DNA from: Alphaproteobacteria bacterium
GTDB taxonomy: Bacteria > Pseudomonadota > Alphaproteobacteria > UBA3830
DNA: 40,824 bases
Assembly (NCBI GenBank): GCA_017649895.1
Contig: JAGCFW010000017.1
Coordinates: 1 to 40,824, forward strand
Reading direction: 5' to 3'
Shown here: positions 800 through 19,270 of the stretch, piece by piece
How the letters are laid out: each line of letters opens with the position of its first letter
Numbering within the stretch: the stretch's first letter is position 1
The notes under the pieces: generated by a model
What the model saw: the letters and a program-made list of their open reading frames with translations, nothing else
Database searches by the model: none
Told to the model about the DNA's origin: nothing
Translations under genes and position numbers: made by a program

Positions 800-2098
800 A
801 TGAAACGAGCGGTGTTTTTGGCAACTTTAATGTATTCGTCAGCAGCGGTGTTCGGAATGCAGGTTCCGTTTGAATCTGTAATTGGAGATGTGTCCTCGGA
901 GAAAACAGAGCGGAAATTAGTAAAGGTAAAGGACATATCCGATAGCGATTCAGAAAGCACGGAAAGTGAAAAGATTAGTTATGACAATCTTGACCAGGGA
1001 AAAAGCTCCTCTCGTCCGAATTTTTTTTCAAAAATTGTACAGGAAAGATATGTGCTTCCGAGTGAGACCGCCAAGGAGTTGATAAAAACAGAATACATTC
1101 CGCCTGAAGAAAGAAATGCAAACTATTTCTCTAATGGCAATCAAACTAGTCGGAGGTTAACCCAGTCATGGAGTACAAGTAGTTCGGAGGATTCCTCAGA
1201 TAGCGATTTTAATAATGCGATTAGCGGAAGAGATTGGCATTCAGTCAGAGTTATTCCGGAGCCTTATTCCCTTCCAGACAATTCCGACAGCGATTCAGAG
1301 AATACGAGTAGTTCGGAGGATTCCTCAGATAGCGATTTTAATAATGCGATTAGCGGAAGAGATCGGCATTCAGTCAGAGTTATTCCGGAGCCTTATTCCC
1401 TTCCAGACAATTCCGACAGCGATTCAGAGAGTAAAAGTAGTAATAATTCTGACTATCAAGATGCTCGAGACTTTCATGTCCTAACGGAGTACGAAGTTGA
1501 TCAATTGCCCCCTAAGGGCAGAATTAAAGCCTTCATTATAAATAAGGGATTGGACATCAATAAGATTAATCGTTTTGGTGATCCTATTTTAGTATATGCG
1601 GCAAGTGAAGGTGATACGGATGTAGTAAAGGAGTTAATAGAAAATGGAGCTGATGTGAACAAGCGAGGTAAATACGGACACACGGCGCTAATATTGGCTT
1701 CTCTACATGGACATAAGTCTATAGTAGAATTTCTGCTGAATAACACAAATGTTGATATCAATATTGTAGATGACGCTGGATGTTCAGCATTAACGAGAGC
1801 GATAATGGAAGGACATATTGAAATAACGGATTTACTTCTAAAGAAAAATCCTGAACTCATTAATTTGAAAAACCAACACGGAAATACGCCGCTCTCTATC
1901 GCAATAGTCAATTGTCAAGAAGCACTTGCAAAATTTTTAATCGAAAATGGAGCAAAGGTCGGTGAAAAAGAGACCGATTTGCTGTATAATGCAGAATACT
2001 GGTTTAAAAATAAAAGAATCAAAGATGGAAGATCTTGCTCTGATCCTGAATTCTGGAAATCGGTCATCAAAAAATTGGAAGAAGAAAATCCGAATTGA
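800..2098 (+). CDS. Exported ankyrin-repeat protein with acidic Ser/Asp-rich linker
   Basis: The product has 432 residues. The first ~20 form a Sec-type signal peptide (Lys-Arg, then a hydrophobic core ending AAVFGM). Residues ~30-215 are low-complexity and rich in Ser, Asp and Glu, with two copies of a 43-residue unit at about residues 127-212 encoded by a 129-bp tandem duplication (1178-1306 and 1307-1435). About four ankyrin repeats follow (residues ~255-390, with GADVNKRGKYGHTALILAS and similar consensus segments). The ATG is preceded by AGGTGG. It faces AmpG1 tail to tail. Ankyrin repeats bind proteins; export plus the disordered acidic linker suggests a surface or effector protein, but no partner or enzyme activity can be read from the sequence. 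Confidence 0.85.
   Translation: MKRAVFLATLMYSSAAVFGMQVPFESVIGDVSSEKTERKLVKVKDISDSDSESTESEKISYDNLDQGKSSSRPNFFSKIVQERYVLPSETAKELIKTEYIPPEERNANYFSNGNQTSRRLTQSWSTSSSEDSSDSDFNNAISGRDWHSVRVIPEPYSLPDNSDSDSENTSSSEDSSDSDFNNAISGRDRHSVRVIPEPYSLPDNSDSDSESKSSNNSDYQDARDFHVLTEYEVDQLPPKGRIKAFIINKGLDINKINRFGDPILVYAASEGDTDVVKELIENGADVNKRGKYGHTALILASLHGHKSIVEFLLNNTNVDINIVDDAGCSALTRAIMEGHIEITDLLLKKNPELINLKNQHGNTPLSIAIVNCQEALAKFLIENGAKVGEKETDLLYNAEYWFKNKRIKDGRSCSDPEFWKSVIKKLEEENPN
1178..1435 (+). repeat. Two tandem 129-bp direct repeats inside the ankyrin gene
   Basis: Copies at 1178-1306 and 1307-1435 are nearly identical; the visible coding difference in the core is TGG versus CGG (Trp to Arg). The unit is exactly 43 codons, so duplication keeps the frame. 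Each unit starts with a Ser-Ser-Ser-Glu-Asp-Ser-Ser-Asp acidic patch and carries a HSVRVIPEPYSLPDNSDSDSE segment. Confidence 0.95.
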
Positions 2099-2128: not shown

Positions 2129-3346
2129 TTAGTCAGATGATGTTTTCTTTTTTATTTTTCTCAGCAATACCAAATTCGGAATTATCAGCATCGGGACGAA
2201 GCAGAAGAATAATTTCCAACCCAAAAGGTTTGCAAAAATTCCCGAAACGGACATGAAGACCAACCCGGAAAGTTCATATAACGCCCAAAGCACGGCGTAG
2301 ATCGTAAGATCCGATACGATCGTATAAAAAAAGCCGAGAAAACAAGCAGTTACTGCTCCGCCGGAAAGCGCTTCGAGGGTAATAATCATGGTCAGGAGAG
2401 TGTTCTCTTTTCCGAATTCGGCCAGCAAAAGGTAGGCCAAAAAGGATATTGCGTGCAGAGACAAAATGAGGCGCATCGATCTTATCAATCCGAGTTTTTT
2501 AACCGCGTACCCTCCGAGAAAGCTTCCGACAATCACGGTGATCGATCCGTAAAACTGAATTATGTTTGCGATTTCGATTTTCGAAAATCCAACCTCGATG
2601 CAGAATATTCTGGACATCTTTTGCATCATAAAATCTGCGGATTTATACAGCCCTACTATCGCCAATAATTTTACACTGTGTTCCGTTTTTAAAAATCGCT
2701 TGATCGGAAGAAAAAATGATTTCAAATAAGATTGTTTCAGCGAAAAATCTTCGCGATTTTCGAAACTCTTTTGCGGCTCCTCAATAACAAAATTGATTAT
2801 CATAACTGCAAAAATCATCAGCGCCGCGAATAAATAAGCCGTTCGCCAATCGAAGAAATGCGCGACGTAAAGCGTTGAAACTTTTATAAAAATTGACCCC
2901 AGGCGATTTCCGAGATTCACGCAGCTTGCAATAAATCCGACTGAATCTTCTTTTTTTCCGACCAATTGATACGGATACAGCACAATATTTTTGCAACCGT
3001 CGGCAATGGCGACAAGAGACGCACCGAAAATCAACCAAAAAACATTTGTGGTCGGATTTGAATTCGCCATAATCACGATCCCGAAAATCAGAAAAACATA
3101 GGAGCAGGTCATCCAGCTTTTATAGCGACTCATTTTCTTGGACAGCATCGGAACATCGAAATTCTCAATGATCGGCCCCCACAAAAACTTCAGCATGAAA
3201 GGCCAATGAATGAAGGAAAACAATCCGATCAGCGTGTTGGAAATTCCGAGATCTTTGAGCCAATAATCGAGGATAGTGATGGTGAGCGGAAACGAAATTC
3301 CGTAACAAATACCTATAAAAATCTTACTCAGGTATCGCGACAACAA
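2129..3346 (-). CDS. AmpG-type MFS permease (AmpG1), N-terminus remodelled
   Basis: A 405-residue, 12-helix major facilitator of the AmpG/PAT branch, which in other bacteria imports anhydro-muropeptides for cell-wall recycling; members in intracellular bacteria may carry other solutes. The core clearly matches the 435-residue permease at 6424-7731 (both have a DYWLKD/DLWLKD element, LIG, a KFLWGP/KFLWAP element and an ADGC motif in helix 4). The frame has no ATG before the conserved region. The best start is TTG at 3346, preceded by GGAGAG, and both lie inside a copied piece of the other permease's 3' end. The first residues (LSRYL) therefore derive from the copied fragment read in another frame, and about 20 N-terminal residues found in AmpG2 are missing, including part of the first helix lead. 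It may be functional from TTG or may be a 5'-truncated pseudogene. Confidence 0.75.
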   Translation of the reverse strand: MLSRYLSKIFIGICYGISFPLTITILDYWLKDLGISNTLIGLFSFIHWPFMLKFLWGPIIENFDVPMLSKKMSRYKSWMTCSYVFLIFGIVIMANSNPTTNVFWLIFGASLVAIADGCKNIVLYPYQLVGKKEDSVGFIASCVNLGNRLGSIFIKVSTLYVAHFFDWRTAYLFAALMIFAVMIINFVIEEPQKSFENREDFSLKQSYLKSFFLPIKRFLKTEHSVKLLAIVGLYKSADFMMQKMSRIFCIEVGFSKIEIANIIQFYGSITVIVGSFLGGYAVKKLGLIRSMRLILSLHAISFLAYLLLAEFGKENTLLTMIITLEALSGGAVTACFLGFFYTIVSDLTIYAVLWALYELSGLVFMSVSGIFANLLGWKLFFCFVPMLIIPNLVLLRKIKKKTSSD

Positions 3347-6423: not shown

Positions 6424-6581
6424 TCAGGTATCGCGACAACAATCTTGCTCTCCAGAATAATCTCTAAGCGACAACAGGATGATTAAACACGGGATAAAAG
6501 TCAATGGAATAAATAGAAAGAAGTTCGTCCAACCCAACGCATCCGCGATAATTCCCGAAACGGTGCGGTAGAAAGTTCCGC
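6424..6581 (-). repeat. Direct repeat copy B (3' end of AmpG2) flanking the importer operon
   Basis: Same orientation as copy A at 3328-3485, exactly 3096 bp apart. The two copies bracket the three-gene ABC importer operon and its leader. Copy B is the native 3' end of the intact AmpG2 gene, including its stop codon. Confidence 0.9.
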
Positions 6582-7731
6582 CCAAATCGTAAAATGCCCA
6601 AAGCAGCGCGTACTGTGTCGCAGCATAATTTCTGTTGCTCATGCTGTAAAGAAAGGCAACAAAGGCGGTCGTAACAGCTCCGCTGGTAACATTTTCGACA
6701 AAAACCGAAAAGTAGAACATTGGAAGATTTTTCCCAACAGCTGCCAGTGCGACGTAGCATAAACAAGATACTGCGTGAATTATTCCGAATCGGATCATCG
6801 ATCTGATTATACCCAGCTTTTTAATAAAAAAGCCGCCGATAACTCCTCCGAACAATGTCGCGATACTTCCGAAAACCTGCACGACATTTGCGATGTCCAA
6901 AATCGAAAAACCTAAATCCATGTAAAACAACCGTGCCATTTTTTGCGCGAGAATATCCCCGGCGCGATAAAGCACGATCACGGCGATGAAGCTTTTCCAG
7001 TCGGGCTGCTTCATGAAATTCTTGAAAGGATCGAACAAACATTGCTGCATCGTGGAGGCGATAATTTGCAACGGCCCTTGCTTTCCGTCAATATTCGATA
7101 CCATTTTGTTCGGCTTCGGCTCGTCTATTTTTAAAATGAAAAATGTGCAAACGAAAATCGAAAATGCCATAGTGAAATAAGCGGCGTTCCATCCGAAATA
7201 ATGGGCAAGGTACAAGGTGATGCTTTTGGAAAACAGTAATCCCGTGCGATATCCGAAAACATAAACTCCTGCCGTCGGGCCGTACATCTGTGAATCGGTT
7301 TTCGACAATTGAAACGTGTACAGCGACATGTCTTGGCAGCCATCAGCGAAAGCAACAAGAGATGTGAAAAACAGCAAGCGGAACAAGCTTGAATTCGGAG
7401 ATGAAGTCGCCATTCCGATAACTCCGACGAAAAGCAACAGCTGACTGGCGATCGCCCATCCTTTTCGCTGTCCGAACATCTTGGATAAAAACGGGAAGTT
7501 AAATTTCTCAATAAACGGCGCCCACAGAAATTTGAAAGCAAACGGAAATTGCAGCAGGGTTATGATTCCGATCAGCGAATTGGACAAGCCGTAATCCTTG
7601 AGCCACAAATCCAATATCGCCAACCGCAGCAGAAAAGGGACTCCACAGGTGAACCCGATGAAAAACTTCGAGCTCAACCCCTTTTTAAAATAAACATCAA
7701 TAAAGTCGTCAAAAAGCGACGCTAATTTCAT
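6424..7731 (-). CDS. ampG: AmpG-type MFS permease (AmpG2)
   Basis: A 435-residue, 12-helix major facilitator of the AmpG/PAT group. In gammaproteobacteria AmpG imports GlcNAc-anhydroMurNAc peptides for peptidoglycan recycling. Here the N-terminal DLWLKDYGLSNSLIG, KFLWAPFIEKF and FADGCQDMSLYTFQL segments are the characteristic parts; the ADGxQD element in helix 4 is typical of AmpG. It is the full-length paralogue of the shorter permease at 2129-3346. Its ATG overlaps the typA stop by 4 bp (ATGA), so the two are co-translated. Its last ~158 bp are copied beside AmpG1. Substrate assignment is by family; Rickettsia-type genomes carry several AmpG paralogues with unproven substrates. Confidence 0.82.
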   Translation of the reverse strand: MKLASLFDDFIDVYFKKGLSSKFFIGFTCGVPFLLRLAILDLWLKDYGLSNSLIGIITLLQFPFAFKFLWAPFIEKFNFPFLSKMFGQRKGWAIASQLLLFVGVIGMATSSPNSSLFRLLFFTSLVAFADGCQDMSLYTFQLSKTDSQMYGPTAGVYVFGYRTGLLFSKSITLYLAHYFGWNAAYFTMAFSIFVCTFFILKIDEPKPNKMVSNIDGKQGPLQIIASTMQQCLFDPFKNFMKQPDWKSFIAVIVLYRAGDILAQKMARLFYMDLGFSILDIANVVQVFGSIATLFGGVIGGFFIKKLGIIRSMIRFGIIHAVSCLCYVALAAVGKNLPMFYFSVFVENVTSGAVTTAFVAFLYSMSNRNYAATQYALLWAFYDLGGTFYRTVSGIIADALGWTNFFLFIPLTFIPCLIILLSLRDYSGEQDCCRDT

Positions 7732-9548
7732 TTTTCCTGTCTGCTCATTTTCTTTCGCGTAATTGCGTCAAGATACTTTTTCCTCAACCTGATGCAGGTC
7801 GGCGTTACCTCGACCAATTCGTCATCCTGAATATAGGACAAGGCTTGCTCCAACGTAATAATTCTCGGAGGCGACAGCTTGATGTTGTCGTCCTTTCCGG
7901 AAGCTCTCATGTTGGTAAGCTGTTTCGTCTTGGTCGGATTGACGTCCAAATCGTTTCCTTTGTTGTTTTCTCCGATGATCATCCCTTCATAAACAGGATC
8001 GCCGGGATTTACAAATAGCGTGCCACGCTCCTCCAGGAAAAACAACGCATAAGGAACAGCCGACCCGTTCGAATTGGAAATCAAAACGCCTTTATTGCGG
8101 TCTTCAATCGGTCCCTTGTACGGTTCATACCCGTAGAAGGATCTGTTCATGATTCCAGAACCTCTCGTGTCCGTCAAGAATTCACTGAAATAACCGATCA
8201 GTCCGCGAGTCGGTATCAAAAACTTCAGACGAGTTTTCCCCGATCCCGAAGGTCGCATATCGACCATATTTCCCTTTCGCAGAGTGATCTTTTCGACGAC
8301 CGCACCGGTAAATTCATCATCGACATCAACGTACAATTCTTCCATCGGCTCGAGTTTTTCGCCCGTTTTTTCATCCGTCTTATACAAAACATGCGGACGG
8401 CTGATCGACAACTCGAACCCTTCTCTTCTCATCGTTTCGATCAGAATTCCCAACTGCAATTCGCCTCGTCCCGACACCTCGAAACAATCTTGCGCATCAG
8501 ATTTTTTTATGGAAATGGAAATATTTCCTTCCGCCTCTTTCTGCAACCTGTCCCAAATAACTCGGGAAGTCAGCTTCTTGCCTTCCTGCCCGCCGAGAGG
8601 TGAATCGTTAATCGAAAAAACCATCGACAAAGTCGGCGGATCAACAGGAATCGCCTTGATCGGTTCGGTCACACTGACGGAACAAATCGTATCCGCAACA
8701 GTCGCGGTCGACAACCCCGCAATCGCGACAATATCTCCGCACTGAGCATGCTCGATCGGAATTCTCTTCAATCCCTCGAACGACAACAGCTTCGTAAGCT
8801 TCGCATTCTCTACGGTTTTATCTCCGCGCAACGCATGCACCGACTCATTGACATCCGCCGAACCCGACAGAATCTTTCCCGTCAAAACACGCCCCAAATA
8901 TTGATCGTAGTCCAACATTGTGACCAACATTTTGAACGGAGCATTTTCGTCGACGGTTGGTGCCGGAATATGCGAAACAATTTTATCCAGCAATGGAGAC
9001 AGATCTTTTCTCTCATCTTCCAAATTCAGTGCCGCCCAACCGTTTCTTCCCGATGCATAGATAATCGGAAAGTCCAACTGCTCCTCATTCGCACCCAACG
9101 CAACAAACAGATCGAAAACTTCATCAATGACTTCGTTCACTCGCGCGTCTTGTTTATCTATTTTGTTGACAACAACAATTGGTTTCAGTCCCAAAGACAA
9201 CGCCTTGGTCAGAACGAATTTCGTCTGTGGCATCGGACCTTCGGCCGCGTCCACCAGCAACAGCACTCCGTCCACCATGCTGAGAATTCGCTCGACCTCT
9301 CCCCCGAAATCTGCGTGTCCCGGAGTGTCGATAATGTTAAATTTTATATCTTTCCACAGGAAACTTGTGCATTTTGCCAAAATCGTAATCCCTCGCTCTC
9401 TCTCGAGGTCGTTGTAGTCCATGGCGCAAGTATCAACCTGCTGATTATCACGGAAAATTCCGCTCTGCTTAAACATTGCGTCCACCAGCGTAGTCTTACC
9501 ATGGTCAACGTGGGCGATAATCGCCAAATTTCTTAACTCTTTGCTCAA
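7728..9548 (-). CDS. typA: Ribosome-associated translational GTPase TypA/BipA
   Basis: The 606-residue length is standard for TypA. The G domain has AHVDHGKTT (residues 12-20), RGITI, DTPGH and NKID; domains similar to EF-G II, III and V follow, and the C-terminal GLIGYFSEFLTDTRGSGIMNRSF and NSNGSAVPYALF segments are diagnostic. TypA binds ribosomes and supports 50S assembly and growth under stress. The start is TTG at 9548, supported by AGGAG seven bases upstream; no ATG lies at the expected N-terminus. It leads a two-gene unit with AmpG2. Confidence 0.97.
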   Translation of the reverse strand: MSKELRNLAIIAHVDHGKTTLVDAMFKQSGIFRDNQQVDTCAMDYNDLERERGITILAKCTSFLWKDIKFNIIDTPGHADFGGEVERILSMVDGVLLLVDAAEGPMPQTKFVLTKALSLGLKPIVVVNKIDKQDARVNEVIDEVFDLFVALGANEEQLDFPIIYASGRNGWAALNLEDERKDLSPLLDKIVSHIPAPTVDENAPFKMLVTMLDYDQYLGRVLTGKILSGSADVNESVHALRGDKTVENAKLTKLLSFEGLKRIPIEHAQCGDIVAIAGLSTATVADTICSVSVTEPIKAIPVDPPTLSMVFSINDSPLGGQEGKKLTSRVIWDRLQKEAEGNISISIKKSDAQDCFEVSGRGELQLGILIETMRREGFELSISRPHVLYKTDEKTGEKLEPMEELYVDVDDEFTGAVVEKITLRKGNMVDMRPSGSGKTRLKFLIPTRGLIGYFSEFLTDTRGSGIMNRSFYGYEPYKGPIEDRNKGVLISNSNGSAVPYALFFLEERGTLFVNPGDPVYEGMIIGENNKGNDLDVNPTKTKQLTNMRASGKDDNIKLSPPRIITLEQALSYIQDDELVEVTPTCIRLRKKYLDAITRKKMSRQEK

Positions 9549-9639: not shown

Positions 9640-10692
9640 TTAACCTTGTTTACCCGGTGTTTGGAATCTTCTGAAAAACGATCGAAAAAATGACCAAACG
9701 GATGATCGGGCGGGCGGTTCGTTAACTTCTGTCTCATTCTTCTGTTTGTCCAATTTTTTTAATTTCCTGATCATTGCGTTCCACTTTGTTTTTTCTCTAT
9801 CATTTTCTACTGATTTTTGATTGTAATACAGCGCCATCGACGGAGTTATGCCACAATTTTGATTTATCAGAATTGCCCCCGCATTTCTCAGTATCTCCAC
9901 CACTTCCCACTGATTATTTCCCATCGCTAAACTTAACGGTGAATAACTTGTATAGGAAAACGCATTAACATTCGCTCCTTTTCCTATCAATGTCCTAACC
10001 AAGCTTTCATAGCCTCTCCAAGACGCAAACATCAGGGGAGTAAATCCTGTATAAATATCCATAACATTGGGATCAGCACCTGATTCCAACAAATATTCCG
10101 CGACTCTGTCGTAACCTCGTTCAGTAGCAAGCAGTAACGAAGAATACCCCATGTGGGAAGAGGCATTAACATTCGCTCCTTTTCCTATCAATGTCCTAAC
10201 CAAACTTTCACAGCCTCTCCAAGACGCAACCATCAAGGGGGAAAATCCGCTAACATCGACAATATTAAGATCAGCACCTGATTCTAACAAATATTCTGCG
10301 ACTCTGTCGTAACCTCGTTCAATAGCAAAGATCAAAGGCGTTTTTCCGAAACATCCTCTTACGTTAATGTTAAATCTGCTATCCGCACAATCCTCGACGA
10401 CTTCTTCTAAACCATTCATCACAGCGTAAAACAACAAGATCGCCTTTTGGTCTTCGTTCCAGCCTCTAAAACGATTTCGACAAGCCTTTTTCGCAAAGAA
10501 TTTCACTATATCATTGTTACGATCTATTATTGCGGAATTTAATTCTCTAAACAAATTACTTTGACCAATTTCGTATTTTCCATTGGATTCGTCCAAATCT
10601 ATCTGTATATTGGTGTGTCCGCCTTGCGCCATGGCCTCGACTTCCCCGCACAACAATACAAAAATCGAACATAGATTTATAACATATTTCAT
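9640..10692 (-). CDS. Exported ankyrin-repeat protein with amphipathic basic tail
   Basis: The product is 350 residues from the ATG at 10692, chosen because GAGGGGGAGG lies just upstream and the next residues form a signal peptide (KYVINLCSIFVLLCGEVEAM). A further 28 codons of open frame upstream are not hydrophobic and lack a ribosome site. About six ankyrin repeats occupy residues ~75-280; two consecutive pairs are copies of one another with a 201-bp period. The C-terminus (about the last 22 residues) is SSVWSFFRSFFRRFQ-rich, an aromatic and arginine amphipathic stretch that could lie on a membrane. It starts the leftward row of exported proteins downstream of typA. A protein-binding scaffold is likely; the target is unknown. 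Confidence 0.85.
   Translation of the reverse strand: MKYVINLCSIFVLLCGEVEAMAQGGHTNIQIDLDESNGKYEIGQSNLFRELNSAIIDRNNDIVKFFAKKACRNRFRGWNEDQKAILLFYAVMNGLEEVVEDCADSRFNINVRGCFGKTPLIFAIERGYDRVAEYLLESGADLNIVDVSGFSPLMVASWRGCESLVRTLIGKGANVNASSHMGYSSLLLATERGYDRVAEYLLESGADPNVMDIYTGFTPLMFASWRGYESLVRTLIGKGANVNAFSYTSYSPLSLAMGNNQWEVVEILRNAGAILINQNCGITPSMALYYNQKSVENDREKTKWNAMIRKLKKLDKQKNETEVNEPPARSSVWSFFRSFFRRFQTPGKQG
9963..10364 (-). repeat. 201-bp internal duplication in the ankyrin gene
   Basis: Two adjacent blocks with a 201-bp (67-codon) offset, for example ATTAACATTCGCTCC at about 9965 and again at about 10166. Each block encodes two ankyrin repeats (RGYDRVAEYLLESGAD and SWRGxESLVRTLIGKGANVN). The limits are approximate because similarity fades at the edges; identity is high enough to suggest recent duplication. 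Confidence 0.8.
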
Positions 10693-10858
10693 GCCTCCCC
10701 CTCGAGGTACATTGTTAACATAATAAATCGTCGAAAAAAACACTCTTTTTAACCTACCGACTGCTCGCAAAGCCATGTTTGGCAGTGCAAACGCAGAAAG
10801 TCATTGAAATTTACCAAAACTGATTGTTTATCGGACCGAGCTTTCGGTGAAGTTCCTG

Positions 10859-11323
10859 CTAAAAATTCAGCTCCACTATTTGCCCCTGCTCGTCCCGGCA
10901 TTTGAATTTATCAAGCCTGCCGAACATTATCGGCTCTTCTTTTTCATATTTTATTCTGATTTTTTGATGTTTAAGAGGCTTAACCCCTGGCTTGTAACCT
11001 TTTACTTTCTCCACCCTGACTAAAGGAATCAAATAACGCACTTCAACCAAATGATTTTTGGCCGAGTCCCCTGATAACGCATTTTCTTCCGATTCTTCTG
11101 CGATGAAATTGATCATAAAACTCCAGAACTTTCCTTTCTTAGAACTATTCTCGCCTTCCCATGTGTAATCTGCTACAGTTTCAGCATAGATGTTGTCTTC
11201 GTTGTTTTTCACCGCTATTTTGTTGCTGTTTTGATCACCTCGGTATCCCTCGGGCATTTCCATCGCGCCGATTTCTCCGTAAAATAACATAAAAATCGCA
11301 AACAATTTCAGAAAAAACATCAT
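10859..11323 (-). CDS. Small exported protein, paralogue of the neighbouring lipoprotein
   Basis: A 154-residue product from ATG 11323, placed six bases after AAGGAG; the open frame extends ten codons further but has no ribosome site there. The start is a signal peptide (MFFLKLFAIFMLFYGEIGAM). Two stretches are shared with the next gene: DNIYAETVADYTWEGE near residue 43 and GYKPGVKPLKHQKIRIKYEK near residue 110, followed by a related ending (DEQGQIVELNF). I do not recognise the family. No Cys lipobox is present, so unlike its paralogue it should be released or membrane-tethered only by its signal. Confidence 0.7.
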   Translation of the reverse strand: MMFFLKLFAIFMLFYGEIGAMEMPEGYRGDQNSNKIAVKNNEDNIYAETVADYTWEGENSSKKGKFWSFMINFIAEESEENALSGDSAKNHLVEVRYLIPLVRVEKVKGYKPGVKPLKHQKIRIKYEKEEPIMFGRLDKFKCRDEQGQIVELNF

Positions 11324-11364
11324 TTCCATCTCCTTAAAATTTACACCTATCATCGTAACCTCCT

Positions 11365-11787
11365 TTAAAAATCCAGCTTCACTATTTGCCCTTGTTCATC
11401 CTGGTATTTGGAATCTTCGAGAAAGCCGAACATATATGGATACTTTTTTTCATATTTTATTCTGATTTTTTGGTGTTTAAGAGGCTTAACCCCTGGCTTA
11501 TAACCTTTTCTCTGCTCTACATCTTTGCGATATTCGACAGTATGTGCCTCAATTGAACGATTTTTGAAAGGCTTTCCGCCAAATTCTCCTCCGTCCACTC
11601 CTTCCCCTTCTTCAGCAATAAAATTGATTTTAAAATAGAAACATGTTTCATCCTCACCTTCCAGTGTGTAGTCTGCCACGGTTTCGGCGTAAATGTCTTT
11701 GTCTTCGCAAGAAGTCAGAGATATTAACGAAAAAACAGCCAGAGCCAAACCCACCATACCTCGCTGAAAAATCTCGGCGAATGACAT
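11365..11787 (-). CDS. Small putative lipoprotein, paralogue of the neighbouring protein
   Basis: 140 residues; ATG at 11787 follows AGGAG at good spacing. The hydrophobic start ends in a lipobox, SLTSC, with Cys at residue 27, so it should be lipid-anchored. The mature part begins directly with DIYAETVADYT, then a variable acidic stretch, then the same GYKPGVKPLKHQKIRIKYEK block as the next gene downstream. It is 41 bp upstream of that gene and likely co-transcribed. Family unrecognised. The pair looks like a tandem duplication whose signal regions were exchanged. Confidence 0.72.
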   Translation of the reverse strand: MSFAEIFQRGMVGLALAVFSLISLTSCEDKDIYAETVADYTLEGEDETCFYFKINFIAEEGEGVDGGEFGGKPFKNRSIEAHTVEYRKDVEQRKGYKPGVKPLKHQKIRIKYEKKYPYMFGFLEDSKYQDEQGQIVKLDF

Positions 11788-11872
11788 AAAATTCTCCTAC
11801 CAAAAAGGGCACGAGACTTCCCGTGACCTGAAATCTACAATTATCAACGATTTCCGCAAAACGTCTGGATTT

Positions 11873-12616
11873 TTAATTTTTGCGAACTTCGTCTGTAAAC
11901 TTTTTACGTTGTCTTTCCCTGGACCTTCTGGCATCAAAAGCCTTTTTCGAACGAGCCGCACGTTGATTTTTCGTCATTTCGGTACCATAAGCTTTTTTCG
12001 AACGTCTTACCCGAGGCGACGCGATCTTGTTTTCCTCGACAACTTGTTTCTCTTCCGATTTAATTTGATCATCTGAAACTACTGGTTCTTTCAGTTGATT
12101 GAATTTATCAGAATTTTTTTCATTACGATTTTTTTCCTCGAGCCAAACATTATTTTCAAAATCTATAGCGTCATGAAATTGCCCTTCGGACTTTGCGTTT
12201 TCATCCTCTTTTTTAACACCTTTAACGACGTCAGCAAAAGATCTTTTATCTCTGAACCAAGGACCTTGTCTCGCTGGAGTCGCCGAATCCGCAGTTTCTT
12301 TATATTGTTCAGATCCCAACGCTTCCCGAACGTTTTTTCCATCTTCGAAATTTTCTGAAATTTTATCAGATTTTTTTTGATTATCTTGCTGATCAAATTT
12401 ACTTATCAGAGCTTTGACGGAACCTTCTTCTATCTTCGCATCTTTCATTCTTTGCTCAAAAGCTTTATTCCGTAAAGCTTCATTTCGTTTGGATTCATCG
12501 ACTTTACTGAATTCTCCCCAATTGTCTACTGTATCCTTCACAGATTCTCTCGCAAAACAATCCGTTCCATACAGCAGGAACATCATGGCACATATACTTA
12601 ACAATCCTATTCTCAT
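11873..12616 (-). CDS. Exported basic protein of unknown function
   Basis: 247 residues with a signal peptide (RIGLLSICAMMFLLYGTDCFA) after an AGGAG ribosome site. The mature chain is highly charged and without hydrophobic core, probably disordered or coiled (alternating Glu/Lys/Asn). The last ~50 residues are strongly basic with a repeated RSKKA element and a run of Arg/Lys clusters that looks like a nuclear or nucleic-acid binding tail. I do not recognise a family. It is the first leftward gene after the 337-bp divergent intergenic region. Confidence 0.65.
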   Translation of the reverse strand: MRIGLLSICAMMFLLYGTDCFARESVKDTVDNWGEFSKVDESKRNEALRNKAFEQRMKDAKIEEGSVKALISKFDQQDNQKKSDKISENFEDGKNVREALGSEQYKETADSATPARQGPWFRDKRSFADVVKGVKKEDENAKSEGQFHDAIDFENNVWLEEKNRNEKNSDKFNQLKEPVVSDDQIKSEEKQVVEENKIASPRVRRSKKAYGTEMTKNQRAARSKKAFDARRSRERQRKKFTDEVRKN

Positions 12617-12953
12617 TTTTTTTCTCCTATAATCATTACACTCGGCTCACAATATCAGGAATTATTTAATTGTTCGTTAATTTTCGTTGATCGAGATTTA
12701 TAAATCGATAAATATCATTCAGAAGTTTATCTGTAGATTATTCTTATCTATTTTGTTCTTTACCTCTTCAAATTAGTTAATAATCTGTTAATTTTTAAAA
12801 GTTGTGATTTCCTATTTCTTAAAAAAATCGACAATTATACATTTATTTTTATATTTTTTTTTTAAATTTTTAGCCTTGTAAACTTTAATTGAGCGTCTAA
12901 AATGTCAGCAACGGTAATGAGGGAGAAACGGCTTAAATGAGGAAAAATAATTT
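12617..12953. other. AT-rich divergent intergenic region
   Basis: 337 bp between the leftward exported-protein row and the rightward pair. It is very AT-rich with a long T/A tract near 12838-12870. It should contain promoters in both directions. I see no gene, no clean -35/-10 pair, no RNA-like structure. Confidence 0.6.
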
Positions 12954-14012
12954 ATGAGAAAATTACAAATATTCGCTTGGATTTGTTTTTCGCTGAGCTG
13001 CTATTCAATGAGTTCGGGAAATAGGTTTTTCAAATTATCAGACAATGAATATATCCAATATCGTTATGAACCTCTGGCAGGATATACGAATGTAACTGTA
13101 GGACAGAATACCCCCACGCGGATCAAAACATACAGAGAATTAGATCCCGACAGAATTCAAATATGGAACATACAAGCGATAAGCTATACAGCGAGCCGTG
13201 TGAATCTGTTTAAAGATTTATGTAACAACTGTTGTCTCGATATATATGAATCCACCTTTAACCCGAATAAATGTCGCATAGTCGGTATAAACGGCCGAAA
13301 TATACATATCAAAATTCCTGCAGTAAGAGAGAATAAGGGAAAGGAAATCGAGACAAGAGGACGAAAAAAATATATCGAATCCTACTGTTTTTCCGTTTAT
13401 GACGTACTAATGAAAGAAAAAGGGCTTGTAGGAAACGAAAACAAGCAGATTTTTGTGGACAACAGCGGAACTTATATTGTATCGACAACAAAAAATCCAA
13501 TAAATGAAGTAGTTGATATGTATGAAAAATACAAGAGGTTTAATTTTAACGGATCCGTAATTAAAGTATCGGCAATTTACGGTGACTTATCAATGAATGG
13601 TCGCCAAATTACTTCCGATGATTTTTTGAATGAAGATCCTCATATTCAATCTGATTCCCCTCAGAACTCGGAAACAAAACCAACCGGAACATTTCTACTA
13701 AACTGCTCCCGCAAAACGCCGGTGTTCATCGGAATAACCTTTGCACCTGTAACAAAATTATACCCGGCGATGCAACAAATCGAAGATATCACTAAGGTAA
13801 AATTAACAAGTCCCCCTCCCAGCGAAAAATCTGTAATAAAACGCGTCGCCGACATATTGGGGGTTTTGACAGATGTGCTCACAATAAAAGACGGCATAGT
13901 ATATCTGGTTGACGCATCCCCCGTGGCGTTGAACGAATACATGTTTGATATGTCCCCGGAAGCTATGATAAATCGCGAACTAATTGCAGCGCGACCATGG
14001 GACAATGTTTAG
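12954..14012 (+). CDS. Exported protein of unknown function
   Basis: 352 residues. The start is hydrophobic (RKLQIFAWICFSLSCYSM), a signal peptide; the Cys context is not a clean lipobox. The mature chain alternates short strands and loops, with a cysteine cluster (LCNNCCLD near residue 90), a long Lys-rich middle, a Ser/Pro linker near residue 230 and a compact C-terminal region with SPPPSEKSVIKRVADILG. No family is recognised. Only 30 bp separate it from the LRR-ankyrin gene, so both are probably one transcript and may act together. The ribosome site is weak (AGGA about nine bases before ATG). Confidence 0.7.
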   Translation: MRKLQIFAWICFSLSCYSMSSGNRFFKLSDNEYIQYRYEPLAGYTNVTVGQNTPTRIKTYRELDPDRIQIWNIQAISYTASRVNLFKDLCNNCCLDIYESTFNPNKCRIVGINGRNIHIKIPAVRENKGKEIETRGRKKYIESYCFSVYDVLMKEKGLVGNENKQIFVDNSGTYIVSTTKNPINEVVDMYEKYKRFNFNGSVIKVSAIYGDLSMNGRQITSDDFLNEDPHIQSDSPQNSETKPTGTFLLNCSRKTPVFIGITFAPVTKLYPAMQQIEDITKVKLTSPPPSEKSVIKRVADILGVLTDVLTIKDGIVYLVDASPVALNEYMFDMSPEAMINRELIAARPWDNV

Positions 14013-14042
14013 GCTTGTTAAAAAATTAAACAGGAGAGGCAA

Positions 14043-16307
14043 ATGAAGTTAAGATTTTTGAGTATATGTTGCATGGCTTCAATGACATTCGCATGGAATT
14101 CTCTCACGATGCAAACCATCATCGAAAAAACTCCGAGAAATTCAGCGGCATACAGAAATTTTCCTTATATGGAATATGTAGGAATCCATGCTGAAAATTT
14201 ACAAGACGCTCAGAAATTAGCACCGTCATGCCCAAAATTACAATGTCTGGATATATACGGAGATATCGAAGAGGACGAGCAGAAACTAAACGCATTATCG
14301 AATTTACTGCTAAAAACTCCCAATCTCCGCGCAATATTTCTTGAAAGAAATCTGCTGAAAAAATGCCCTTTGAAAATAGGCAATCTGCAAAACCTCTGTT
14401 CACTGCATTTAGCAAAAAATCGATTAACTACTCTTCCTACAGAAATCTCTAATTTAAGAAATTTGCAAAATTTATACTTGGAAGAAAATGAATTCGAAAT
14501 CTTCCCTGAAGCGATACTCAGACTAAAAAATTTGAAACAATTACATATAGAAAAAAATCAAATAACAAAATTACCTTATGCGTTATGGAAAGTTCCCGGA
14601 TTAAAAGAAGTGATTATAGACAGATTCTTAGTACCGCAAGTACCGAGATACGCAATTGCAAACGAAATAATTCATAATTCCGTAGTAAATTGCCTATTGG
14701 CATGGAAAAATCATTTTAAACTAACTGATCAACAATTGGACTTGATGATAAACAACGATTTCGTAATCAAAAAAATCACCATAGATGAAATAAACACATA
14801 CGAATGGGTAAGTCTAGATGGATGGAAAGCGACACAACAACCGGCTCAATCTAATTTTGTACGTGTATCTCTTAACAAAGTGAAATATTCTCCCTCTATT
14901 CTTAATAGCGTGGCTCTAAATTCAGGAACAAATTGGCTACATATCTGTGCTGAGCAAAATGATTTAAAAGCTGTAAAATGGTTAGTGAACCATGGTGTAA
15001 AGATAGATTTTCTCGACAATTCCGGAGGAACTCCGTTAATGTACGCCTCTGAACCGGGACACTTGGACATTATAGAATATCTGTTCAAAAATGGAGCGAA
15101 TATCAATGCGCAAAGCTACATTCATATCACTCCGTTGTTGCTCGCTTGCGGATATAAGCATTTTGATGTAGCAAGATGGTTGATCGAACACGGCGCAGAC
15201 GTTAATGCGCCAGGAAACAGGAATTTCACTCCAATAATGTTGGCCGTTCAGTTCGGAGACATAAATATTATAAAATATCTTATTGAACACGGGGCGAAGA
15301 TAAATGTGCAGGAAAATCACGGATTAACTCCCCTATCCTTTGCATCCGCATCGGGAAACTTAAACGTCGTGGACCTGTTGATCAAACACGGAGCTGATGT
15401 AAATTTATCAGAGAAAAAGGAAAATCGACCACTATTTGCCGCAGCAAAAAACGGACATCCAAAAATAGTAAAATATTTAATTGAACACGGCGCCGAAGTA
15501 AACATTTGCAACAGTACAGGATGGACTCCATTGATGTCAGCGGTCATAAGCGGACAACTTGACGCAGTGAAACATCTGCTCGAACAAGGAAAAGCTGATA
15601 TCGATGCCCAAGAGGAGCACAAACTTACGGCATTGATGATTGCGATTACGTCCAAATATCCGGAAATAGCCATGTATTTGGTCGAACACGGAGCTAATAT
15701 CAATACAAAAGAAATTCACGGATTGACTCCATTTGCTTTGGCAATTGCAGCGGAAAATTTGAATCTTGTGAAATTTTTGGTTAAGCATGGAGCAATCATT
15801 AAAGACATTCTTAATGAAGGAAATACTCCCTTACATTTTGCCGTAAAAAACCAAGATACAAACATCGCCGAATATTTGATCAAAAACGGTATCGACATCA
15901 ATACAACTGCAAACTATGGAATAACACCGTTGCACGATGCTATCACCAAGGGAAACTTGAAAATGGTGAAATTTTTGGTCGATCACGGAGCCAACGTCAA
16001 TGCAGTTACCAAAGAAGGAATAACTCCGTTGCTGTCGGCTGTCTTGGAAAACCAAATATATGTTGCAGAATATCTACTTGAACACGGTGCGGAACCAAAT
16101 GCCGGAGTAGTTTGCCAATCAATCGGAAAATGGACTCCGTTGATGTTTGCGACAATAAGAGGAAATTTGGATATGGTAAGGATATTAGTTACCCACGGTG
16201 CAGAGATCTGTACCAAAACGAGCAAATTTTCGATAATGGATGTCGCCCAAATATACGAACATAAGAATATCTTTAATTTTCTCAAAGAGCATGTCGAGAA
16301 AAATTAG
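14043..16307 (+). CDS. Exported LRR-ankyrin fusion protein
   Basis: 754 residues after a strong ribosome site (GGAGAGG). Residues 1-~25 are a signal peptide. Residues ~45-185 hold about five leucine-rich repeats of the bacterial/plant-like type (LPTEISNLRNLQNLYLEEN and similar), closed by LWKVPGLKEVIID. A non-repeat helical segment follows (~195-285), then about thirteen ankyrin repeats (residues ~293-740) with GADVN/GANIN turn motifs. Both repeat types are protein-binding scaffolds and are often acquired by host-associated bacteria. No catalytic domain is visible. The closing LRR motif recurs in the LRR protein at 27862. Likely an exported protein aimed at host or symbiont partners; this is inference. 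Confidence 0.88.
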   Translation: MKLRFLSICCMASMTFAWNSLTMQTIIEKTPRNSAAYRNFPYMEYVGIHAENLQDAQKLAPSCPKLQCLDIYGDIEEDEQKLNALSNLLLKTPNLRAIFLERNLLKKCPLKIGNLQNLCSLHLAKNRLTTLPTEISNLRNLQNLYLEENEFEIFPEAILRLKNLKQLHIEKNQITKLPYALWKVPGLKEVIIDRFLVPQVPRYAIANEIIHNSVVNCLLAWKNHFKLTDQQLDLMINNDFVIKKITIDEINTYEWVSLDGWKATQQPAQSNFVRVSLNKVKYSPSILNSVALNSGTNWLHICAEQNDLKAVKWLVNHGVKIDFLDNSGGTPLMYASEPGHLDIIEYLFKNGANINAQSYIHITPLLLACGYKHFDVARWLIEHGADVNAPGNRNFTPIMLAVQFGDINIIKYLIEHGAKINVQENHGLTPLSFASASGNLNVVDLLIKHGADVNLSEKKENRPLFAAAKNGHPKIVKYLIEHGAEVNICNSTGWTPLMSAVISGQLDAVKHLLEQGKADIDAQEEHKLTALMIAITSKYPEIAMYLVEHGANINTKEIHGLTPFALAIAAENLNLVKFLVKHGAIIKDILNEGNTPLHFAVKNQDTNIAEYLIKNGIDINTTANYGITPLHDAITKGNLKMVKFLVDHGANVNAVTKEGITPLLSAVLENQIYVAEYLLEHGAEPNAGVVCQSIGKWTPLMFATIRGNLDMVRILVTHGAEICTKTSKFSIMDVAQIYEHKNIFNFLKEHVEKN

Positions 16308-16498
16308 TTTTACACATTAAGGCGCGTCGAAAATTTATTAAAAGCAAATAACCGCGCGCCATTTTGGCTGATTCTCATATACACTGAATTTTCAACTTTC
16401 ACAAATATATTATTATTTTGATAATTGAGGGATTTCTTTACTTTTTATTAACCTTGCAGTGTTAAATCTTAATAAAGAATGAATGTTAAGGTTTGATT

Positions 16499-16909
16499 AT
16501 GCAGGCAAGTTTATTTAAGAGAAATGCAGTGCTAGTGGAGCAAAATCCCATGCATTGTAGGCTGTACAGCGACTTGCTGGAAGCCAACGGATTCGATGTA
16601 TATGTCGCCAAATCTGTTATGGATGCGCTCGTAAAAATCCGAGAAAAATCTCAAGATTTAGTCCTCATAAATACCGAAATAGTCGAAGAAAAATTCATAC
16701 AAAAATTTATACATAACGTCAGGAATGAAGAAACCTCAAAAGACATGCCGATTATCGGAATTTCCATTTATGGAGAAGATAAGAAAAAAAATATTGCGGA
16801 AATTGTAGATAGTTTCTTAACAAAGCCTTTTTCTCTTGATAGACTCATGGAGTCAATTGATAGTTGCGTAGAAGAGCCGAATGATACTGAGAGTCTTGAT
16901 TATCAATGA
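16499..16909 (+). CDS. DivK-like response regulator with degenerate phosphorylation site
   Basis: 136 residues, a single receiver domain of DivK size and layout (LYSDLLEANGFDVY, then PIIGISIYG and the LTKPFS lysine). DivK is the cell-fate regulator that acts on DivL/CckA and PleC/DivJ in alphaproteobacteria. Here the phosphoacceptor Asp is Asn (N58 in LINTEI) and the acidic pocket reads E14-Q15-N16 rather than E-D-N. The conserved Lys of the KP motif is kept. It probably cannot be phosphorylated. ATG 16499 is chosen because AAGG lies seven bases upstream; a TTG two codons earlier is possible. The next gene overlaps its 3' end by 29 bp, matching the divK-pleD order of Caulobacter. Confidence 0.8.
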   Translation: MQASLFKRNAVLVEQNPMHCRLYSDLLEANGFDVYVAKSVMDALVKIREKSQDLVLINTEIVEEKFIQKFIHNVRNEETSKDMPIIGISIYGEDKKKNIAEIVDSFLTKPFSLDRLMESIDSCVEEPNDTESLDYQ

Positions 16910-18155
16910 GTGTGGATTAGATCTGAGTCGTATCAAAAAATATCTGGAGGACAATTTTTCCAAAGTGACCGAGTCGCGATCGATGGAAGACGCGCTTCGG
17001 GCTGTCGGACGAAGTCATTTGGATTTGGTTTTGCTGGCTTTGTCAGACGCCAAGAGCATCTGCTCGGATTTTCTTTCGGTACTGCGGCTGACTCTCGGTG
17101 TAACACCTTTGATAGGAATCGCTGATAACTGCTTGCCGTGTGACTTTCCTCTTTTCTCAAATAGAGGCGTCGATGACATCGTGTATTCGGATATTTCCGG
17201 AAGCGATTTATTCAGAAAAGTTCATGCATTATCCGAAGCAAAGGAAAAAATCTACAGTTCCTTTTTGGTTAAGGACGCATTGAGAAAGCCGAAAAACAAA
17301 AAAATAACGGTATTTTCAGAAAACCGTCTGGATTTGTTCGACACGGATTTTCTGGATAAAGGGACAGTCATTAATTTCGTAAAGAACAGCAATCTGACAA
17401 ATTACCCTTTGTCGGATATTTTTCTGATAGATGCAAAACTTAAAAATATCGAGCAACTGTGTATCAACTTGAAGTTATGCAAAGCATATCGCTACAAACC
17501 GATTCTTCTAATCACGGACGAAATTCATAGAAAAAAAGCGCTCTCCGTGTGTCGCAAAAACATCGGCGCACTGGATATAATAGACTTGGGCACGCACCCG
17601 TCAATAATTTCCTGTATGGTAGATGCCCACATAAAATATAAAAGGCTGCTGGACGGATTCTACCACGAAGTAAAAAGAAATATTTACATGTCGTCGGTTG
17701 ATGCAATCACATCAGTTTACAATCGCAGTTTTCTCGAAGATTACATTTCCAGACGAGATGAAGCGTTGAATCACTCCGCGGTTTTGATGATAGATCTCGA
17801 TAAATTCAAGGAAATCAACGACAGATACGGACATACTTTCGCGGATAAAGTTCTCGGTGAAGTGGTTGCCCACATAAAGTCTTACATAAGATTGACAGAT
17901 TTCATTGCGCGATACGGCGGAGATGAATTTTTAATTTTCATGAGAAATATTTCTCGCGAAGAAATCGAAAAAATTGCCCTGCGTCTAGTCAACAGCGTCG
18001 AAAATAAATTATTCAACGGAATTCGCTGCACCATAAGCATCGGAGCATGCTACATCGGATCAGAAAATGTCAAACTTCGCGAGGCAATTTTTATCGCCGA
18101 CAGCTTTATGTATATTTCCAAAAGATCCGGTGGAAATTCCGTTTATCTTTGCTGA
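16881..18155 (+). CDS. pleD: PleD-like diguanylate cyclase (REC-REC-GGDEF)
   Basis: 424 residues with PleD architecture: receiver 1 (~1-125), receiver 2-like adaptor (~135-260) and a GGDEF domain (~265-424). The active motif RYGGDEF is intact (GGDEF at 346-350), with an upstream RLTD at 337-340 at the right distance to be the c-di-GMP inhibitory I-site. Receiver 1 has lost the phosphoacceptor (Ala53) and the acidic pair reads N9-E10, so phosphorylation-driven dimerisation, the normal PleD switch, is unlikely. It should make c-di-GMP from GTP, feedback-limited, by some other control. The ATG lies inside the end of the DivK-like gene. Confidence 0.87.
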   Translation: MILRVLIINECGLDLSRIKKYLEDNFSKVTESRSMEDALRAVGRSHLDLVLLALSDAKSICSDFLSVLRLTLGVTPLIGIADNCLPCDFPLFSNRGVDDIVYSDISGSDLFRKVHALSEAKEKIYSSFLVKDALRKPKNKKITVFSENRLDLFDTDFLDKGTVINFVKNSNLTNYPLSDIFLIDAKLKNIEQLCINLKLCKAYRYKPILLITDEIHRKKALSVCRKNIGALDIIDLGTHPSIISCMVDAHIKYKRLLDGFYHEVKRNIYMSSVDAITSVYNRSFLEDYISRRDEALNHSAVLMIDLDKFKEINDRYGHTFADKVLGEVVAHIKSYIRLTDFIARYGGDEFLIFMRNISREEIEKIALRLVNSVENKLFNGIRCTISIGACYIGSENVKLREAIFIADSFMYISKRSGGNSVYLC

Positions 18156-18265: not shown

Positions 18266-19270
18266 ATGAATAAATTTTGCGCACTGAGTTTGAGCATGTT
18301 GTTATGCCTTGTGGGCTGTAAAGATTCCAAAAAGAGACCGCTGAAAGAACAAAGTCGTCACTCCTCACCTTTACGCGGATTAAATTGGCTTAACGAAAAG
18401 AGGCCGCTGAAAGAACAAAGTCCTCACCCATACCACGAAAAAACAGGTGACGAATTAATGGATCACGCAAAATCTTGGGGACTTACAAATTTGGAAACTC
18501 TCGGCATGACGCTAGATTTAACAACAAGAAATGAAGCTATCGATATTTTAAACTCTCGCGAATATACGATAGCATTATTTAAGCGAGGAATTCTGGAAGA
18601 AGTAGATCTTGCGGGATTGTCTCAAAAATGGCTTGAAAAATGGTTTGCAAAAGGACTGCCTTCGAATGAATTATTAGGCGATGGGATAAAATCGTTTCAT
18701 GATAGATTAAAAAAATCCAGTGTAGTGTTAGCCGGAAATGTAGAGTTTCAAGGCAGATGGGATAACCTTAGCATCCCAGACGACTGTAAAAATGATTTTA
18801 TGTTTTTTGTTTTCGATGAAAACGAAAAATTGATAATGTTTTTCAAACAATATCCGGAAAACATGGAGGCCGGATTGGTTATATATGAAGGAATAAAAGG
18901 TTCCGGAATAAGCAATATGGGAGAGAAAAAACCGACCATAATTTTCAGAAAAGATCGATCCTTTGCGATTGTCGAGAAAAAAGATCCTAAGGCAACATCA
19001 TTCACTATTTTTGCTCCGTCAATTGTTGGAAAACACGTCGATGCATTCAATAAAGCGGGCGAAAGCATGATAAATTCAAAGGAGTTTAAAGAACTTCAGA
19101 AAAAAGAAAAAGAATACCTCAAGGATTTTGAAGGTTTACCGAGCAAAGAATACAGAAAAAAACGCGAAGAATTCAGAAATTCAAAAGAATATAAGGAATT
19201 AAGAAAAAAGATGGAAGAAAAATCCCGTCGTGAGTATTTGAAAAATCTAAACAAATTATCAGCAAAATAA
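18266..19270 (+). CDS. Lipoprotein of unknown function with charged C-terminal coil
   Basis: 334 residues from ATG 18266, six bases after AAGGAG. The signal ends in a lipobox (CLVGC, Cys at residue 19), so it should be lipid-anchored. The N-terminal mature part contains the octapeptide KRPLKEQS twice, 25 residues apart, from a short DNA duplication. The centre (~70-255) looks globular but I do not recognise it. The C-terminal ~80 residues are a Lys/Glu-rich helix with EFKELQKKEKEYLK-type repeats, probably a coiled coil. It sits before ftsL in the place where rsmH would be in a classical division cluster; a separate promoter precedes ftsL. Confidence 0.75.
   Translation: MNKFCALSLSMLLCLVGCKDSKKRPLKEQSRHSSPLRGLNWLNEKRPLKEQSPHPYHEKTGDELMDHAKSWGLTNLETLGMTLDLTTRNEAIDILNSREYTIALFKRGILEEVDLAGLSQKWLEKWFAKGLPSNELLGDGIKSFHDRLKKSSVVLAGNVEFQGRWDNLSIPDDCKNDFMFFVFDENEKLIMFFKQYPENMEAGLVIYEGIKGSGISNMGEKKPTIIFRKDRSFAIVEKKDPKATSFTIFAPSIVGKHVDAFNKAGESMINSKEFKELQKKEKEYLKDFEGLPSKEYRKKREEFRNSKEYKELRKKMEEKSRREYLKNLNKLSAK

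What the first reader, a model, noticed from the sequence alone, without database searches (positions are those of the whole stretch)
9640..16307. Island of exported scaffold and orphan proteins between typA and divK
Six consecutive genes all start with signal peptides and none is a recognisable housekeeping gene: ankyrin, two small paralogues, a basic protein, an unknown protein and an LRR-ankyrin fusion. Leftward and rightward sets diverge from one AT-rich region. Such a block is a candidate host-interaction locus, and the unknown gene at 12954 is only 30 bp from the LRR-ankyrin gene, hinting at a functional pair.
Basis: partly seen in the sequence, partly recalled or inferred. Interest (0 to 1): 0.6.

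Follow-up and report, generated by a model that had tools for sequence, protein, structure and literature searches.

The report
Variable exported ankyrin/leucine-repeat gene cluster
Between two housekeeping genes of an uncultured, small-genome alphaproteobacterium (sister genome from a rumen sample), six neighbouring genes encode fast-changing exported proteins, and two of them, an unknown protein and an LRR-ankyrin protein, are always inherited and lost together, which makes them a likely pair, possibly used on a eukaryotic host.

Summary
Six consecutive genes (9640-16307) carry export signals, none is housekeeping, and the two sets diverge from a 25% GC spacer. It is not an island in the sense of a mobile element. 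It is one variable slot between housekeeping genes, and the same genome scatters many more exported ankyrin (ANK), LRR and orphan genes.

The key prediction held. The unknown gene (X, 12954) and the LRR-ANK gene (14043) are adjacent, same order and strand, in all five genus genomes that have either. They were lost together with the basic gene from a nested sister genome. A promoter-like motif upstream of X is conserved, and no terminator separates the pair.

X founds a new exported family, essentially confined to this genus, with four subgroups; it matches no Pfam, NCBIfam, PHROGs or PDB entry. The two small paralogues differ in export type: one is a lipoprotein; the other fuses its homologous mature part to the neighbouring ANK gene's signal peptide.

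No VirB4 was found, but a type II/type IV pilus-like export system and a Tad pilus were. The best known parallel is the Sec-exported ankyrin repertoire of Babela and Chromulinavorax. Host interaction is likely but unproven. AlphaFold models were unusable, so how X works is unknown.

The parts
9640..10692 (-). ANK protein, 350 aa, signal peptide then ankyrin repeats (ORF runs to 10776; better start 10692)
   Evidence: Pfam Ank_2 1.6e-38; RBS and orthologue starts
10859..11323 (-). small paralogue 1, 154 aa: ANK-type signal peptide fused to a mature part homologous to small paralogue 2 (probable chimera)
   Evidence: mature part homologous to 11365 (57% identity); SP 43/66 nt identical to the ANK SP against 25 +/- 2.7 for other SPs
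11365..11787 (-). small paralogue 2, 140 aa predicted lipoprotein (lipobox SLTSC)
   Evidence: orthologue in G004 69-70% identical; degraded remnants in G003, G005, G008
11873..12616 (-). basic, Lys/Glu-rich exported protein, 247 aa; signal peptide conserved, mature part poorly conserved
   Evidence: orthologues at the same divergent position in G004, G001, G005, 31-46% identical
12617..12953 (.). AT-rich divergent intergenic region (24.6% GC)
12876..12903 (+). putative promoter of the X/LRR-ANK pair, TTGTAA-16-TAAAAT, conserved in four genomes
   Evidence: the consensus scan alone is at chance level; conservation is the evidence
12954..14012 (+). X, 352 aa exported protein of an undescribed, nearly genus-restricted family (subgroup A)
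   Evidence: no Pfam/NCBIfam/PHROGs/PDB match; family alignment A2 of 19 members
14043..16307 (+). exported LRR-ankyrin protein, 754 aa (LRR about 75-200, ankyrin about 285-750)
   Evidence: Pfam LRR_8 1.9e-11, Ank_2 1.1e-101
7728..9548 (-). left flank: typA (GTPase)
   Evidence: 97-99% identical among the carriers and G003
16493..18155 (+). right flank: divK-like receiver (16493-16909) and pleD-like diguanylate cyclase (16881-18155)
   Evidence: Pfam Response_reg; NCBIfam PleD/GGDEF

Best explanation
This is a gene slot of high turnover between typA and divK that holds part of a large, dispersed, Sec-exported repertoire of ankyrin, LRR and orphan proteins. Its stable core is a two-gene operon, X then LRR-ANK, driven from a divergent AT-rich promoter region shared with the basic gene. 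Shown: export signals (predicted); conserved adjacency and joint loss of the pair; fast but constrained evolution; decay of the ankyrin half of LRR-ANK in one sister while X and the LRR half persist; no VirB4 in the genus but a type II/type IV pilus-like machinery. Inferred: co-transcription; X and LRR-ANK acting together after export; the repeat domains binding proteins of a eukaryotic host (most plausibly a rumen ciliate or other gut protist); exit across the outer membrane by the type II-like secretin or by vesicles. The molecular action of X is not known.
For: Pair adjacent in G000, G004, G001, G008 and G005. G003 keeps typA, ANK and divK but lacks X, LRR-ANK and basic, and sits inside the clade of carriers (support 1.0 for G000+G003+G004), so this is a joint loss. 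dN/dS between G000 and G004: 0.18 X, 0.21 LRR, 0.27 ANK, 0.34 small, 0.36 basic, against 0.01-0.09 for typA, MFS, divK, pleD and ftsI. The ankyrin half of the G004 LRR-ANK gene is a frameshifted remnant. VirB4 0 of 9; secretin and T2SSF 9 of 9, with GspE, GspF, secretin and a prepilin read in G000. Ankyrin matches 110 in G000, 35-95 in the other carriers, 79 in G003, 38 in G007, 2-7 in G002/G006, which lack X. Alphaproteobacteria are enriched with rumen protozoa (PMC11222294; PMC6217230).
Against: No host, expression or secretion data. Signal peptides were predicted by a heuristic. The type II-like system is also present in G002/G006, which lack X and are poor in ankyrins, so it is not specific to this repertoire, and its gene set was only partly verified. 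Only nine genus genomes exist, several incomplete (63-97%); absence in G007 (73%) is weak evidence. In G005 the pair lies on a 3.4-kb contig, so its placement at this slot is not shown. A eukaryotic host is inferred from family resemblance alone.
Confidence: 0.6

Rival explanations
1. Envelope-resident module: the proteins stay in the periplasm or on the outer membrane and serve the bacterium itself, for example as scaffolds for a pilus or for cell-cycle-coupled envelope functions, not host interaction.
For: One member is a predicted lipoprotein; TadE-like genes occupy the same slot in G001, G005 and G008; the slot is next to divK/pleD; the genus has Tad and T4P/T2SS-like systems.
Against: The exported proteins evolve far faster than flanking envelope genes such as ftsI; X and LRR-ANK are dispensable (absent in G003, G002, G006); the ankyrin expansion tracks lineage, not pilus genes, which are in 9 of 9 genomes.
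Confidence: 0.25
2. Mostly neutral clutter: a tolerant intergenic slot that accumulates duplicates and decays, with no shared function among the six genes.
For: Small lipoprotein gene decayed in G003, G005 and G008; ankyrin half decayed in G004; gene order differs between genomes.
Against: X and LRR are under purifying selection (dN/dS about 0.2) and never separated in five genomes; the promoter-proximal sequence of X is conserved.
Confidence: 0.12
3. Mobile or defence island acquired horizontally.
For: The slot is hypervariable; G008 carries an MNT/HepT-like nucleotidyltransferase pair there; PADLOC models with ankyrin repeats match.
Against: No integrase, transposase or phage gene in the block; GC 38% against 41% for the window; PADLOC hits cover only ankyrin repeats, X and the small proteins have none; homologues are confined to the genus and one or two neighbour genera.
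Confidence: 0.03

Closest known systems
Sec-exported ankyrin repertoire of Babela massiliensis and Chromulinavorax destructans (Dependentiae)
   Same: Small genome, expanded ankyrin proteins mostly with Sec signal peptides, many exported orphans, type II system as predicted exit in Babela (PMC4378268; PMC6561590).
   Different: Different phylum; here the lineage is alphaproteobacterial with no demonstrated host, and relatives of X and the small proteins were found only in this and neighbouring genera.
Type IV secretion ankyrin effectors of Legionella (Ank family) and Rickettsiales
   Same: Ankyrin repeats; NCBIfam Dot/Icm Ank models match the repeats.
   Different: Scores far below cut-off (e.g. 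194 of 600 bits); Sec signal peptides present; no VirB4 in the genus.
Type III LRR effectors (XopL, XopAC, XopAE)
   Same: LRR region of LRR-ANK and of 27862 resembles their LRRs.
   Different: Far below cut-off, only the LRR is matched, Sec signal peptide present.
Secretin N-terminal domains (Secretin_N_2/STN)
   Same: My own reading by eye of short motifs in X.
   Different: No profile match to any secretin domain; no model good enough to test the fold. An unconfirmed lead only.

Membership tests
Babela-type Sec-exported ankyrin repertoire | Ankyrin proteins with Sec signal peptides | tested here: met
   ANK 9640, LRR-ANK 14043, window 800-2098 and others; predicted by heuristic only
Babela-type Sec-exported ankyrin repertoire | Genome-wide ankyrin expansion | tested here: met
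   110 Ank_2 matches in a 1.1-Mb, 79% complete genome
Babela-type Sec-exported ankyrin repertoire | Type II-like export machinery and no type IV secretion system | tested here: inconclusive
   GspE, GspF, secretin and a prepilin present, VirB4 absent; full T2SS set, T1SS, T3SS and T6SS not tested; cannot tell T2SS from T4P
Babela-type Sec-exported ankyrin repertoire | Replication inside a protist | not testable with these tools
   uncultured MAG; only circumstantial literature
Type IV secretion ankyrin effector | A VirB-type secretion system | tested here: not met
   PF03135 0 of 9 genus genomes, control rang in Caulobacter; Dot-specific genes not searched
Type IV secretion ankyrin effector | Above the curated score of an Ank effector family | tested here: not met
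   best 194 bits against cut-off 600
Type III LRR effector (XopL and similar) | Above the curated score of the family | tested here: not met
   at most 44 of 600 bits for LRR-ANK, LRR only
Type III LRR effector (XopL and similar) | A type III secretion system in the genome | not tested
Mobile genomic island | Integrase or transposase and foreign composition | tested here: not met
   no such gene in the block; GC 38% against 41%
Anti-phage defence system | Complete PADLOC system | tested here: not met
   only ankyrin-repeat cross-hits

The most novel reading that the evidence does not exclude
The lineage builds its exported repertoire by exchanging signal-peptide segments between neighbouring, unrelated genes. 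Here the ANK signal peptide was fused to a lipoprotein's mature domain, turning an anchored protein into a soluble exported one, and X/LRR-ANK is a dedicated two-protein exported effector with X as an obligatory partner.
Probability: 0.25. Interest if true: 0.55.

Novelty: new member of a known kind. Interest (0 to 1): 0.36.

Why it matters
It gives a concrete, testable pair (X with LRR-ANK) and a new exported protein family in a little-studied alphaproteobacterial lineage whose sister genome comes from the rumen. If the proteins reach a ciliate or other protist, this would be a VirB4-free route to an ankyrin effector repertoire in Alphaproteobacteria, convergent with Dependentiae. The chimeric paralogue suggests how an anchored lipoprotein can become a soluble exported protein by a local fusion.

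Tried and rejected
Structure prediction of X (pLDDT 29, two sequences) and of the small paralogue (pLDDT 45, three sequences) was unusable, so no fold search was run. Profile search of X against PDB gave only chance hits. Dot/Icm, Xop and MzaA matches were rejected as repeat cross-hits. Promoter and terminator scans as such were at chance level. The idea that Met directly after the signal peptide is a dedicated sorting mark was weakened: it is enriched in G000 (27-28 of 97 against 4.4% background) but also present in G006/G002 (12 of 84; Fisher P 0.03), and three of the G000 cases have the AM inside the hydrophobic core.

Full report
WHAT IS THERE. The window is contig C14 of an unnamed 1.1-Mb alphaproteobacterial draft genome (79% complete). 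The closest relative found, G004, has an 81,568-bp contig that is also the public record CACXWU010000004.1, 'uncultured proteobacterium isolate RUG11675'; RUG stands for Rumen Uncultured Genome (PMC5830445). Between typA (7728-9548, minus) and a divK-like receiver (16493-16909, plus) lie six genes: ANK, two small paralogues and a basic protein leftwards, X and LRR-ANK rightwards. The spacer from which the two sets diverge, 12617-12953, is 24.6% GC. All six have signal-peptide-like starts by my heuristic.

IS IT MORE THAN CHANCE. In a 447-kb sample of the genome 95 of 390 ORFs of 90 aa or more look exported; a run of six arises in 5% of gene-order shuffles, and other runs of 4-6 exist. So the run alone is only borderline. 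The comparative evidence is stronger.

THE SLOT IN SISTER GENOMES. I read the typA-divK region in six genomes. G004 has one small lipoprotein gene, ANK, basic, X and an LRR gene. G001 has basic, X, LRR-ANK and a TadE-like gene, without ANK or small genes. G008 has ANK, a small-gene remnant, X, LRR-ANK, an MNT/HepT-like pair and a TadE-like gene, then divK; its typA is on another contig. G005 has basic, X and LRR-ANK on a 3.4-kb contig, and a small-gene remnant interrupted by a TadE-like gene next to typA. G003 has only ANK plus a small-gene remnant. In G002 and G006, the nearest outgroups, typA and divK are on different contigs and neither X nor the LRR gene is found. A tree of six flanking proteins puts G003 with G000 and G004 (support 1.0), inside the carriers, so X, LRR-ANK and basic were lost together there.

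THE PAIR. X and the LRR(-ANK) gene are adjacent, same strand and order in five of five genomes. They are separated by 30 bp in the window, with no terminator-like site between. Upstream of X the sequence TTGTAAACTTTAATTGAGCGTCTAAAAT is largely conserved in four genomes although the middle of the spacer is not, consistent with a promoter. In G004 the ankyrin half of LRR-ANK is reduced to a frameshifted remnant while X and the LRR half persist, so the LRR half is the part that stays with X.

THE X FAMILY. X has no match in Pfam, NCBIfam, PHROGs or PDB. A 19-member family exists in this genus plus one genome of a neighbouring genus (G014), with a weak partial match in another (G019). G000 carries four members: A (window), B on C5, C on C18, D on C20. 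B and C sit singly between housekeeping genes that are the same in sister genomes. Only A is paired with LRR-ANK. All share an N-terminal conserved region and have variable C-termini; A and B also share a PPPSE/K motif region. The two AlphaFold jobs gave unusable models.

SIGNAL PEPTIDE EXCHANGE. The two small paralogues are homologous in their mature parts (57% identity) but not in their export signals: 11365 has a lipobox, 10859 has a signal peptide matching that of the neighbouring ANK gene at 43 of 66 nucleotides, against 25 +/- 2.7 for other signal peptides of the genome and none of 20,000 codon shuffles. The similarity to the G003 ANK protein runs on to residue 36. The simplest reading is a fusion between neighbouring genes. 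Weaker similarity links the starts of basic and LRR-ANK.

EVOLUTION AND SETTING. dN/dS (G000 against G004) is 0.18-0.36 for the genes of the block where orthologues exist and 0.01-0.09 for typA, MFS, divK, pleD and ftsI, although the lipoprotein gene 18266 outside the block is also 0.21: fast but constrained. Ankyrin matches are 110 in G000, 95 in G004, 35-88 in the other carriers, 79 in G003 and 38 in G007 but 2-7 in G002 and G006. The window itself holds further exported ANK (800-2098) and LRR (27862-28995) genes outside the reported block. So the block is a sample of a dispersed repertoire, not a unique locus.

EXPORT ROUTE. VirB4 is absent in nine of nine genomes. Each genome has two secretins and four T2SSF matches. 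In G000 one secretin belongs to a Tad pilus cluster; the other adjoins prepilin-like genes, and a GspE-GspF pair is on another contig. This fits a type II secretion or type IV pilus system; I cannot tell which.

COMPARISON. Babela massiliensis (126 ankyrin proteins, 79 with signal peptides, type II the only secretion system; PMC4378268) and Chromulinavorax destructans (98 ankyrin proteins, 78% with signal; PMC6561590) are the closest known pattern. The locus looks like that pattern, but a protist host is not shown here. Rumen protozoa do carry enriched alphaproteobacteria (PMC11222294, PMC6217230), which makes a ciliate host plausible, no more.

VERDICT. The functional-pair idea is supported; the island idea is replaced by a variable slot in a dispersed exported repertoire; host interaction is likely but unproven.

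Noticed in passing
window 9640-16307 and L026, L081, L083, L091, L096: Exported orphan, ANK and LRR proteins often have Met directly after the signal peptide (VFGM, GAM, WGM): 28 of 97 in the G000 sample against 4.4% background; 12 of 84 in G006/G002.
   Followed up: partly
L060:5356-6062: A nucleotidyltransferase plus substrate-binding (MNT/HepT-like) pair sits in the same slot in genome G008.
   Followed up: no
L076:40-2219: In G005 a TadE-like gene interrupts the remnant of the small lipoprotein gene next to typA; TadE-like genes are also in this slot in G001 and G008.
   Followed up: partly
window 2129-3346 and 6424-7731: Two MFS transporter paralogues (about 40% identical) next to typA are conserved in the sister genomes.
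   Followed up: no
window 18266-19270: A predicted lipoprotein between pleD and ftsL with a short N-terminal repeat; the G003 orthologue (L061:4540-5733) is longer and shows extra copies. No family match.
   Followed up: no
L083:15245-17979: Tandem exported LRR proteins sharing a near-identical signal peptide with window 27862.
   Followed up: no
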